DNA from: Pseudomonadota bacterium
GTDB taxonomy: Bacteria > Desulfobacterota > Desulfobulbia > Desulfobulbales > SURF-16
Length of the DNA stretch: 33,279 nt
NCBI GenBank assembly: GCA_018816555.1
Contig: JAHIVT010000162.1
Coordinates: forward strand, 1 to 33,279
Direction: 5' to 3'
Positions within the stretch are counted from its first letter, which is position 1; each line of letters starts with the position of its first letter. The notes below the pieces were generated by a model. It did no database searches and had not been told where the DNA came from. It saw nothing but the letters and a program-made list of their open reading frames with translations. The translations under genes and the position numbers were made by a program. Below, one piece after another: positions 1-4,347 of this stretch.

Positions 1-140
1 CACAAAAGCTAACAATACAGGAAGAACTTTATGGTCGCCTTGCAATATATTCCATGTAAATTCAATGTGTTACATTGTAAGATAACCAGACTCACCACCT
101 GGTTGTCTTAATCTGTAAAAGCGTTCGCGAAAATCGGTGA

Positions 141-440
141 TTATCAAACATAGAAATTTTTATTCCGTCTATCGATGTTATCAGTGCTTATGAAAAAGCC
201 ACTTTGTCATTATTTGAGCAAATTGTGATTAACAACCAATTATCCGCCACCCTCGTCCAAATCCGCGACGCCCTCCTGCCCAAATTGATGAATGGGGAAA
301 TATCCGTAGGGGCGGGTTCCAAACCCGCCCTCTATGAGAACCCCACCCTCGTCCTTGGGTTGGGTCCAAAAGACAGGGCAGGTTTGGAACCTGCCCCTAC
401 CCAATCCACCGCCACGGAATCACCACGGGGGCCATCATGA
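141..440 (+). pseudogene. hsdS: hsdS 3' remnant (type I restriction specificity subunit, C-terminal end)
   Basis: The open frame reads through NIEIFIPS, then an acidic helix, then the segment IRDALLPKLMNGEISV. That segment is the usual last helix and tail of HsdS proteins, which recognise DNA and hold HsdM and HsdR in the type I complex. The frame is closed by a TGA at 138-140, and no HsdS-like reading is visible in bases 1-137, so the two target-recognition domains are missing or the gene is disrupted here. A possible frameshift around 121-150 (frame 1 reads FAKIGDYQ before a stop) may join more of the gene. After GEISV, where HsdS normally ends, the frame runs into a REP-like palindrome and continues to a TGA at 438-440. 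I call it a broken gene; an intact hsdS with a frameshift is the alternative. Confidence 0.6.
306..400 (+). repeat. REP-like inverted repeat, copy A (in the hsdS tail)
   Basis: The left arm 306-331 and right arm 375-400 are inverted copies of one another with a single G/A difference. Each arm is itself a small hairpin (GGGCGGGTT / AACCCGCCC type). The outer ends are GTAGGGG and CCCCTAC. Translated in the frame of hsdS, the arms give GAGSKPAL and RAGLEPAP, the same peptides produced by copy B in the neighbouring transposase gene. The layout of two opposed hairpins is that of a bacterial interspersed mosaic element mobilised by RAYT enzymes. Confidence 0.85.
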
Positions 441-1137
441 CCGATAACGCCCAATACAACCCCGCCATTCACCATCGCCGTTCCATTCGGTTGCAGGGGT
501 ATGATTATTCCCAGGCCGGGGCCTATTTCATAACCATCTGCACCCACAACCGGGAATGTTTGTTTGGTGCCGTAACCGTAGGGGCGGGTTCCAAACCCGC
601 CCTCTCCAAACCCGCCCTGGGGCCGTGGCCACAAGACAGGGCAGGTTTGGAACCTGCCCCTACCCAATCCGCCGCCCAAATGGTGTTAAACGAATTCGGA
701 GAAATCGTCCACTGCACATGGGATGATTTGCCTAACCACATTGGCGGGATTGAATTGGATTCATTTGTAGTCATGCCAAATCATGTTCATGGAATTATCG
801 TTATCACTGAGGTGGGGACGGAACCAAAGGATAGGGCGAGTTCGGAACCTGCCCTTACGGGAACAAGCTTATTACCGGAAATTGTACGGCAACTGAAGAC
901 GTTTTCGGCCCGCCGCATCAATCAAAGACGTGGCGTCCAGGGACTTTCGGTCTGGCAACGCAATTATTATGAACATATCATTCGAGATGAAAAGGATTTA
1001 ACACGCATTCGTGAATATATCGCCAATAATCCCGTGAATTGGCAGTCGGATGAAAACTACCTGGAAATGCCCAGAACGGTAGTTGCCGAGAATTTCTCAG
1101 TAACTGTTAAGTCTCGACGTGGCAAGGAGGGCAATAA

Positions 1138-1141
<4 letters not shown>
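437..1141 (+). CDS. REP-associated tyrosine transposase (RAYT, Y1/HUH family)
   Basis: A 234-residue single-strand DNA transposase of the IS200-like Y1 superfamily, the type that binds and cleaves REP palindromes. The N-terminal block with [18 protein letters not shown] and the metal-binding His-x-His motif MPNHVHG (H116, H118) are present, as is the tyrosine region WQRNYYEH (Y177/Y178, one being the likely nucleophile) followed by the usual IANNPVNW. Two stretches are extra compared with the family: residues about 48-78, which are REP copy B translated in frame, and about 126-142, from a degenerate copy C. The ATG overlaps the hsdS TGA (ATGA at 437-440), and the stop overlaps the hsdR ATG (1138-1141). 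The insert lies between CLFGAV and [10 protein letters not shown], normally a short loop, so the enzyme may still fold. Family assignment is secure; activity is unknown. Confidence 0.9.
578..663 (+). repeat. REP-like inverted repeat, copy B (inside the transposase gene)
   Basis: The left arm 578-603 is identical to that of copy A, and the right arm 638-663 is identical to the right arm of copy A. A 15-bp in-frame tandem duplication of the left-arm end (590-603 and 605-618) gives the peptide KPALSKPAL. The flanks match too: both copies are preceded by CCGTAGGGG and followed by ACCCAATCC[A/G]CCGCC. The element keeps the reading frame of the gene it interrupts. Confidence 0.85.
810..858 (+). repeat. 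Degenerate REP-like element, copy C
   Basis: The right arm 833-858 differs from the right arm of copies A and B at a few positions. The left part around 810-826 (GTGGGGACGGAACC) is a decayed left arm. It is translated in frame in the transposase as [14 protein letters not shown], so it looks like an older insertion than copy B. Confidence 0.6.

Positions 1142-4347
<3,206 letters not shown>

What the first reader, a model, noticed from the sequence alone, without database searches (positions are those of the whole stretch)
306..663. REP-like palindromes inserted in frame in two coding sequences
Copies A and B are nearly identical double hairpins that keep the reading frame of an hsdS remnant and of a RAYT gene and give the same peptides ([16 protein letters not shown]). 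Copy B also carries a 15-bp in-frame duplication. In-frame palindromic inserts are known from Rickettsia RPE elements; a REP element inside its own candidate transposase is unusual. The peptide could be a tolerated insertion or a way of coupling the element to translation.
Basis: partly seen in the sequence, partly recalled or inferred. Interest (0 to 1): 0.75.

Follow-up and report, generated by a model that had tools for sequence, protein, structure and literature searches.

The report
Transposase gene carrying its own target
A small bacterial transposase-like gene carries, inside its own protein-coding sequence, copies of the DNA hairpin it probably acts on, and across its relatives this built-in hairpin and the protein helix that probably reads it change together, like a lock and key passed on as one piece.

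Summary
Copies A (306-400) and B (578-663) are paired GTAG-REP hairpins (REPINs), in frame in an hsdS tail and in a RAYT gene (437-1141). REPs inside this RAYT class are already in print (Quentin 2018, subclass 2.4), so the basic finding is a new member of a known kind. New in my searches is how they behave. Of 184 RAYT ORFs, 157 carry a REP tag in the loop after the HUH motif. The REP core varies between genes and tracks the next helix (and one face of alpha-B), hardly the rest of the protein. The helix column covarying most strongly with a REP base aligns with the E. coli residue reported to contact the REP. Three closely related genes in one genus carry three different REP-plus-helix segments on one backbone; one keeps another's REP type beside the gene. 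Most likely the loop REP and its reading helix form an exchangeable specificity cassette, so a RAYT that changes specificity brings its substrate along. Covariation and swaps are shown; binding, cutting and benefit are inferred. Copy B sits in a second loop, used in 6 of 184 genes.

The parts
141..440 (+). open 3' part of a broken hsdS reading frame, running through copy A to a TGA that overlaps the RAYT start (ATGA 437-440)
   Evidence: frame 2 translation of the window head
306..400 (+). copy A: REPIN (two GTAG-REP hairpins, tags outward), arms 306-331 and 375-400, in frame at the 3' end of hsdS, 5' of the RAYT
   Evidence: inverted repeat I3; translation
437..1141 (+). RAYT / TnpA_REP, 234 aa, HUH and Tyr present; stop overlaps hsdR start (ATGA 1138-1141)
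   Evidence: NF047646 E 1.3e-19 at 70.6 bits, under its cut-off of 80; Y1_Tnp 30.4 bits, over its cut-off of 23; fold 4er8 Z 12.2
578..676 (+). copy B: REPIN 578-663 in frame at site 1 (about residues 48-80) with a 15-bp in-frame duplication at about 591-620
   Evidence: insert absent in most relatives; low pLDDT
692..739 (+). alpha-B helix (residues 86-101), second element whose residues covary with the REP core
   Evidence: model; columns 54-66, window residues 90-102
782..790 (+). HUH motif (His116, His118)
   Evidence: invariant columns
813..858 (+). copy C: degenerate REPIN in frame in the post-HUH loop (the usual in-gene REP site of this subclass)
869..919 (+). first 17 residues (145-161) of the helix after the loop, the proposed REP-reading helix; same type as relatives with GGGTT-type REPs; column 115 = Arg151, column 119 = Thr155
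1016..1018 (+). Tyr194, putative catalytic tyrosine
   Evidence: invariant; aligned with E. coli Y115 (numbering worked out; its catalytic role is recalled)
1138..4347 (+). hsdR, type I restriction subunit
   Evidence: TIGR00348 E 6.7e-180

Best explanation
The gene is very probably a group 4 / subclass 2.4 RAYT. In this subclass the loop between the HUH strand and the next helix usually holds an in-frame copy of the RAYT's own REP. That REP, the following helix (alpha3 of E. coli TnpA_REP) and the alpha-B helix together set specificity. They behave as one exchangeable cassette (about 276 bp in the clearest case) inside an otherwise shared catalytic backbone. When the cassette is replaced or the gene moves to a new host, the reading helix arrives with a copy of the hairpin it reads, so the enzyme has a substrate from which a new REP population can be seeded. 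In the window the loop copy has decayed; fresh copies of the same type lie 5' of the gene (A), in a second permissive loop (B) and in hsdM on another contig. SHOWN: in-frame REPs; REP core-helix covariation that the backbone does not explain; segment swaps between closely related genes; matching REPs in flanks and genomes. INFERRED: that the helix reads the REP in this subclass, that the RAYT cuts or mobilises it, and that linkage is why the REP stays in the gene.
For: 157 of 184 RAYT ORFs have GTAGGG or CCCTAC in the loop (68/81 in the genome contigs set, 89/102 in the phylum set). Inverted-repeat score >=10 in 136 of 180 loops against 6.9 for synonymous shuffles and 3 for an upstream control. 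In 145 dereplicated genes, controlling for backbone distance, REP-core similarity goes with residue identity at columns 112 (.32), 115 (.28), 116, 119 (.21), 120 (.27), 121 and weakly on alpha-B (54-66, up to .14); columns before 54 and after 144 stay within .06 of zero apart from a few at -.08 or -.09; helix partial Mantel .317, null sd .02. Column 115 with REP base 5 is the strongest pair, and column 115 aligns with E. coli K82, reported to contact a REP base (Corneloup 2021). Nearest neighbour by helix predicts the core with 1.60 of 8 mismatches; by 87 backbone columns 4.32; random 4.67. REP type changes 82 times on the backbone tree (500 shuffles: mean 92.5, minimum 84) and 18 on the helix tree (floor 17). 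L160, L173 and L197 (one genus; 838 bp or more downstream 88-89% identical in each pair) carry three segments; L160 keeps an L197-type REPIN in its 3' flank. Of 33 pairs with N and C parts >=78% identical in DNA, 14 share the core (helix DNA .80-1.0) and 17 do not (mean .53). 89 of 126 loci have own-type REPs in the flanks, shuffles 12.2. Copies beyond the loop copy: 7 of 9 genomes with a TCGCG-type RAYT (24 of 386 others have any copy) and 7 of 7 with an ATTCATG-type RAYT (21 of 388 others). Helix-similar pairs keep 90% REP-arm identity while third positions are at 48%.
Against: 27 of 184 loops lack these tags and some have only 6-13 residues, so a loop REP is not needed for the gene to exist. 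The window's own loop copy is degenerate. One different-core pair keeps a similar helix (L144/L155, helix DNA .90) and one keeps alpha-B (L138/L154.91), so segments are not always replaced whole; the 17 different-core pairs share 17 loci and are not independent. For L173 only the downstream side matches L160 and L197. Some lineage signal remains: 82 changes is below all 500 shuffles, and the window at columns 137-152 reaches .071 (2 of 100 permutations as high). 93 of 335 flank tags within 400 bp are of another type. The own genome holds 15 TCGCG-type REPs although its only RAYT at E<=1e-25 is of another type, with 9 of 26 candidates scored. REP types for the tree were drawn up after seeing the REP-helix table; the distance tests do not use them. 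Mutual-information scores ignore relatedness. No binding, cleavage or expression data.
Confidence: 0.72

Rival explanations
1. Self-insertion. Each RAYT mobilises only its cognate REP, and copies keep landing in permissive loops of its own gene (and of genes such as hsdS and hsdM). The match between loop REP and helix then arises anew each time; there is no cassette and no benefit.
For: All six site-1 inserts contain REP sequence or decayed REP units; own-type REPs flank the gene; in-frame copies in hsdM and hsdS here; in-frame REPs in many genes elsewhere (Di Nocera 2013).
Against: The post-HUH loop is tagged in 157 of 184 genes, site 1 has inserts in 6 of 184, and no insert of 8 or more residues was found elsewhere in the profile span, so position is far from random even among permissive loops. 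In L160 helix and loop REP are both of one type while a flank REPIN is of the L197 type.
Confidence: 0.35
2. Neutral tolerated insertion into a peripheral loop with little effect (the published reading of Quentin 2018).
For: Both sites are low-confidence loops in the model; the peptide varies and the REP is read in two frames (116 and 47 tags).
Against: Neutral relics should lose their palindrome and their DNA identity: 66 of 184 loops carry perfect 27-29 nt palindromes, and helix-similar genes keep 90% REP-arm identity at saturated third positions. Neutrality alone does not explain the REP-helix match.
Confidence: 0.15
3. Autoregulation: the in-gene hairpin in single-stranded DNA or mRNA is bound by the RAYT or stalls ribosomes and limits its own synthesis.
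For: Cognate-type hairpin inside the gene; ATGA overlaps in the window suggest coupled translation. Not tested.
Against: Nothing specific; I saw no RNA binding by RAYTs in the passages read, but did not search for it. The REP differs from gene to gene in reading frame and in spacing.
Confidence: 0.15
4. Shared descent only: REP types mark RAYT lineages, so any part of the protein would correlate with them.
For: Closely similar genes often share REP types (14 of 33 pairs); 82 changes on the backbone tree is fewer than in any of 500 shuffles.
Against: Windows outside columns 57-80 and the helix show little correlation with REP core even before control (raw r .002-.094); 82 changes on the backbone tree against a floor of 17.
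Confidence: 0.03

Closest known systems
TnpA_REP subclass 2.4 of Quentin et al. 2018 (= RAYT group 4 of Bertels 2017, as Quentin reports)
   Different: They read the region as peripheral with little impact. Here the loop REP tracks the adjacent helix and swaps with it. The window also has a REPIN at a second site, and every intact REPIN of its type found in the genome is in coding sequence
Intragenic GTAG REPs (Di Nocera et al. 2013) and Rickettsia RPE
   Same: In-frame palindromes, more than half dimers or groups, coding for 20-30 residues
   Different: The examples seen there lie in unrelated host genes; here the host gene is the associated transposase, at two recurrent sites
E. coli TnpA_REP (rayT) and its REP, PDB 4er8
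   Same: Fold (Z 12.2), HUH, conserved W-Q region, helix at the place of alpha3
   Different: The aligned E. coli loop between the HUH strand and alpha3 is short (about GDDD), too short to hold a REP; E. coli REPs have a bulge
Type I hsdS target-recognition-domain swapping (works like)
   Same: Exchange of a specificity segment between conserved flanks (search listing, and recall)
   Different: Here the exchanged segment also contains the DNA site that it is thought to recognise; unrelated protein

Membership tests
TnpA_REP subclass 2.4 / RAYT group 4 | HUH plus Tyr core of the RAYT type | tested here: met
   NF047646 E 1.3e-19, 70.6 bits, under its cut-off of 80; Y1_Tnp over its cut-off; invariant H116, H118, Y194; 4er8 Z 12.2, rmsd 3.2 over 129 residues
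TnpA_REP subclass 2.4 / RAYT group 4 | variable-length region between HuH and Y with in-frame REP | tested here: met
   copy C at 813-858, degenerate; tags present in 157 of 184 ORFs
TnpA_REP subclass 2.4 / RAYT group 4 | placement in the published subclass by its own HMM or tree | not tested
   the published profiles and sequences were not at hand
GTAG REP / REPIN | GTAG tag at the foot of a GC-rich hairpin, dimers with tags outward | tested here: met
   GTAG at 306 and 578, CTAC at 397-400 and 660-663
GTAG REP / REPIN | repeated in the genome | tested here: met
   six exact hairpins (A, B, hsdM), one at one mismatch (copy C) and three at two mismatches in 4.93 Mb, a small family
REPtron | RAYT cuts or mobilises the associated REP | not testable with these tools
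   needs biochemistry; the paper read assayed E. coli, Stenotrophomonas and Marinomonas systems
Type I restriction-modification operon (context) | hsdM, hsdS, hsdR in order | tested here: inconclusive
   hsdR beside the RAYT; hsdM, a DUF1016-like ORF (label recalled) and a truncated hsdS ORF end contig C90; no join between C90 and C43 found

The most novel reading that the evidence does not exclude
Group 4 RAYTs carry a self-labelled specificity cassette. The helix that reads a DNA hairpin is encoded beside an in-frame copy of that hairpin, and the two are exchanged as one unit between transposase backbones across phyla. The 145 natural pairs collected here are then a readable recognition code between helix residues and REP bases.
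Probability: 0.6. Interest if true: 0.85.

Novelty: new variant of a known kind. Interest (0 to 1): 0.7.

Why it matters
How RAYTs choose their REPs, and how new REP families start, are open questions; Corneloup 2021 says contacts of the group 3 enzymes can only be speculated on for want of structures. If the loop REP is the substrate of the adjacent helix, then for a gene of this subclass with an intact loop REP the recognition site can be read from the gene alone, and the natural swap pairs are ready-made domain exchanges for the bench. A transposase gene that holds its target in frame beside its reading helix would also explain how a changed or newly arrived RAYT avoids being left without a substrate.

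Tried and rejected
Peptide as a conserved domain: rejected. The same 28-nt REP is read as GRGTACRAPT in L067 and VGARHAVPL in L074, and GTAGGG tags lie in two frames, 116 and 47, with none in the frame that gives a stop. REP type as a mere lineage marker: rejected as the whole explanation, though a weak lineage signal remains. Identical-REP pairs as proof of constraint: the first count (110 pairs, 47% codon identity) was chosen on identical REPs and is biased, so pairs chosen by helix were used instead. Genome counts: the first contrast (9 of 9 and 7 of 7 positive) counts the loop copy itself, so for the TCGCG type it is partly true by construction; leaving the loop copy out gives 7 of 9 and 7 of 7. 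Joining C90 to C43 as one operon: no overlap or shared 16-mer was found, so order is suggested only by gene content. Foreign REPs in flanks as a general rule: only 16 foreign tags with an exact match among the other loop cores, in 11 loci; the clear case is L160. Exact-string literature search for the REP: no paper. A broad phrase search returned noise. Structural neighbours under Z about 8 were not considered.

Dropped rows: of 190 sequences searched (the window's first 4000 bases and 189 loci) 7 gave no ORF that passed the filter. Of the matches listed (a capped list) I used the 30 loci that it fetched, one of them the window, and 80 more. Of 184 ORFs, 35 had no readable right arm and 4 near-identical ones were removed, leaving 145; 19 of the 145 fitted no REP type and were left out of the tree counts, leaving 126. 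Three pairs of identical genes, loci held in both collections, were left out of the 33 pairs. L120 is the window itself and was removed. Profile columns in the loop (about 92-109) also correlate with the REP, but are coded by it, and were not counted as evidence.

Full report
WHAT IS THERE. Window 306-400 and 578-663 are two REPINs: pairs of hairpins with GTAG tags pointing outward, cores GGGCGGGTTCCAAACCCGCCC and GGGCAGGTTTGGAACCTGCCC. Copy A is in frame in an hsdS tail (open from 141, stop TGA 438-440). Copy B is in frame in a 234-aa RAYT (437-1141) matched by NCBIfam NF047646 (E 1.3e-19, 70.6 bits, under its cut-off of 80) and Pfam Y1_Tnp (30.4 bits, over its cut-off of 23). The RAYT overlaps the hsdS-tail frame and hsdR by ATGA at its two ends. 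A third, degenerate REPIN lies in the same gene at 813-858. The window lies on contig C43 of a 4.93-Mb assembly of 183 contigs. The only other exact copies of this REP type are one REPIN in frame in hsdM on C90, absent from an hsdM in a similar operon (L040). So the six exact hairpins found in this genome are all in coding sequence, in restriction-modification genes or the RAYT; three sites at two mismatches (C75, C86, C115) were not examined.

STRUCTURE. An AlphaFold model from a 23-row alignment (mean pLDDT 74.3, pTM 0.69) puts copy B's insert between two short strands and copy C in the loop before the helix at 145-165, both with low confidence. The fold is that of E. coli TnpA_REP bound to a REP hairpin, 4er8: Z 12.2, rmsd 3.2 over 129 residues; IS608, ISDra2 and related transposases follow at Z 9.6-11.5. 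His116, His118 and Tyr194 are invariant in the alignment, so the expected catalytic residues are present.

WHAT IS KNOWN. Di Nocera 2013 (PMC3733652; abstract, sections 5 and 16, part 1 of the discussion and passages seen) describes GTAG REPs and in-frame REPs in many genes. Quentin 2018 (PMC6006769; [quoted passage not shown] Corneloup 2021 (PMC8266576; outline, introduction, part 1 of the discussion and section 29 seen) reports that E. coli K82 on the DNA-binding helix alpha3 contacts a REP base. Nunvar 2013 (PMC3686654; abstract and passages seen) links REP abundance to the cognate RAYT. Bertels 2017 and Messing 2012 are not held. I found nothing on a REP-helix cassette in the listings; the library lacks most subscription papers and preprints, and supplements were not open to me.

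THE FAMILY PATTERN. I collected 184 RAYT ORFs: the window, 81 from the 80 loci, and 102 from genomes in a sample of 395 of the phylum. In 157 of 184 the post-HUH loop carries GTAGGG or CCCTAC: 68 of 81 and 89 of 102 in the two sets. With the stricter GTAGGGG or CCCCTAC it is 152 of 184, against 17 of 184 in the rest of the profile span. Perfect double-foot palindromes of 27-29 nt occur in 66 of 184. Of 180 loops long enough, 136 score at least 10 for inverted repeats, against 6.9 for synonymous shuffles and 3 for a stretch upstream. Six of 184 genes have an insert of 8 or more residues after profile column 44, the site of copy B; the five other than the window are L038, L039, L041, L187 and L216, and their inserts contain REP sequence or decayed REP units. 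No other insert of that size was seen outside the loop. In-frame REP tags beyond the core at the C terminus occur in 25 of 184. The profile behind the phylum sample was built from 23 relatives, most of them with loop REPs, so the frequencies are not an unbiased census.

REP AND HELIX GO TOGETHER. The loop REPs have many cores, and most core types go with their own version of the next helix. For 145 dereplicated genes with a readable right arm, residue identity correlates with REP-core similarity, after removing backbone distance, at columns 112 (.32), 115 (.28), 116 (.17), 119 (.21), 120 (.27) and 121 (.21), spaced roughly like one helix face. A weaker signal lies on alpha-B (54, 58, 61-62, 65-66.08-.14) and in the stretch after the helix (up to .17). 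Columns before 54 and after 144 are near zero. The partial Mantel value is .317 for the helix (null sd .02, 0 of 100 permutations as high) and .144 at most for windows around alpha-B; for N-terminal windows up to column 56 it is .028 or less; for columns 137-152 it is .071 (2 of 100). A leave-one-out neighbour by helix predicts the core with 1.60 mismatches of 8 (alpha-B 3.06, backbone 4.32, random 4.67). The strongest residue-base pair is column 115 with REP base 5, then 119 with base 6 (relatedness not controlled). In the hhalign alignment column 115 (window Arg151) falls on E. coli K82; a shift of a residue or two cannot be excluded.

SWAPS. REP type (126 typed genes, 18 types) needs 82 changes on a tree of 87 backbone columns, where 500 shuffles give a mean of 92.5 and a minimum of 84, so lineage explains a little. 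On a tree of 19 helix columns it needs 18; the floor is 17. Windows of 19 columns elsewhere need 44 (53-71, alpha-B), 61 (40-58), 65 (66-84) and 83-88. Among 33 pairs with N and C parts at least 78% identical in DNA, 14 share the core and have helix DNA identity .80-1.0; 17 differ in core and have mean helix identity .53 (range .35-.90, the .90 being L144/L155); 2 could not be typed; the 17 pairs involve 17 loci. L160, L173 and L197 come from three genomes of one genus and share 838 bp or more of downstream sequence at 88-89%, so they are very probably the same gene at the same place; upstream of the gene only L160 and L197 match. They carry three different REPs and helices. Between L160 and L197 the upstream part and the first part of the gene are 92-95% identical, alpha-B to just before the conserved Trp 33-61%, and the last part 88-89%. 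Local matches stop at L160 position 1156 and resume at 1433, giving a tract of about 276 bp. L160 still has an L197-type REPIN 3' of the gene, as expected if helix and loop REP were replaced together and the flank was not.

GENOMES. Own-type REPs occur in the flanks of 89 of the 126 loci that have any tag there (shuffles: mean 12.2, maximum 22 of 1000); exact copies lie at a median of 96 bp on the 5' side and 92 bp on the 3' side. Two type-specific searches of 395 genomes (at most 2 mismatches): the TCGCG-type REP occurs in 33, the ATTCATG-type in 28, reversed control 0 in the genomes listed. Nine genomes have a RAYT with that core or the one-step variant CTCGCG; 7 of 9 have copies beyond the loop copy, while 24 of 386 others have any copy. 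For ATTCATG it is 7 of 7 against 21 of 388. TCGCG REPs occur in 0 of the 7 ATTCATG genomes and ATTCATG REPs in 1 of the 9. Of the other positives 13 and 10 have two or more copies; in some of them a RAYT fragment outside my set overlaps or adjoins a REP (G350, G274, G163).

DNA, NOT PEPTIDE. The same REP is read in two frames with different peptides (L067 and L074). In 207 pairs with helix identity of at least .8 and backbone identity up to .75, REP arms are 90% identical (identical in half) while third positions at shared residues are 48% identical. The REP is therefore kept, or renewed, as DNA.

MECHANISM AND LIMITS. The cassette reading (0.72) explains position, match, turnover and the L160 flank. 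Self-insertion by each RAYT into a permissive loop (0.35; the two are not exclusive) explains the match and copies A, B and the hsdM copy, but less well the one preferred loop and the joint change in L160. Neutral drift does not explain the match. Autoregulation was not tested. 27 of 184 loops lack the tags, so the loop REP is not essential. In the window the loop copy is decayed and copy B is best read as an insertion at a tolerated second site.

CONTEXT. 32 of the 182 other loci have a gene similar to hsdR, hsdM, hsdS or the DUF1016-like gene (tblastn E <= 1e-6) within the 1-3 kb held, all on the RAYT's strand; 19 of them have hsdR or hsdS, and 7 show hsdS-RAYT-hsdR. No control set was run for this.

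Noticed in passing
window 1-4347; loci listed: RAYTs of this group sit beside type I restriction-modification or DUF1016-like genes in 32 of 182 other loci (19 with hsdR or hsdS), always on the same strand, in 7 in the order hsdS-RAYT-hsdR as in the window. No background rate was measured.
   Followed up: partly
L138 and L154: The RAYT's stop-to-stop frame overlaps an hsdM-like stretch (L138, 694-residue open frame) and a DUF1016-like stretch (L154), suggesting in-frame fusion or insertion of a whole RAYT into these genes.
   Followed up: no
own genome, contigs C14, C101, C102, C151 and others: A second REP family (GTAGGGGCGGTTCGCGAACCGCCCCTAC, 15 sites at up to 2 mismatches) is present although the only strong group 4 RAYT found is of another type; not all candidates were scored.
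   Followed up: no
L038, L041, L083, L093, L108, L062; window 591-620: In-frame tandem expansion of short units, often REP-derived, inside the RAYT (for example DMRAGLEP repeated in L041), like the 15-bp duplication in copy B.
   Followed up: no
C90 end (L238) and window 1-140: hsdS is broken: a 308-aa ORF lies near the end of C90, and an hsdS tail lies at the start of C43; an unassembled repeat between them is possible.
   Followed up: partly
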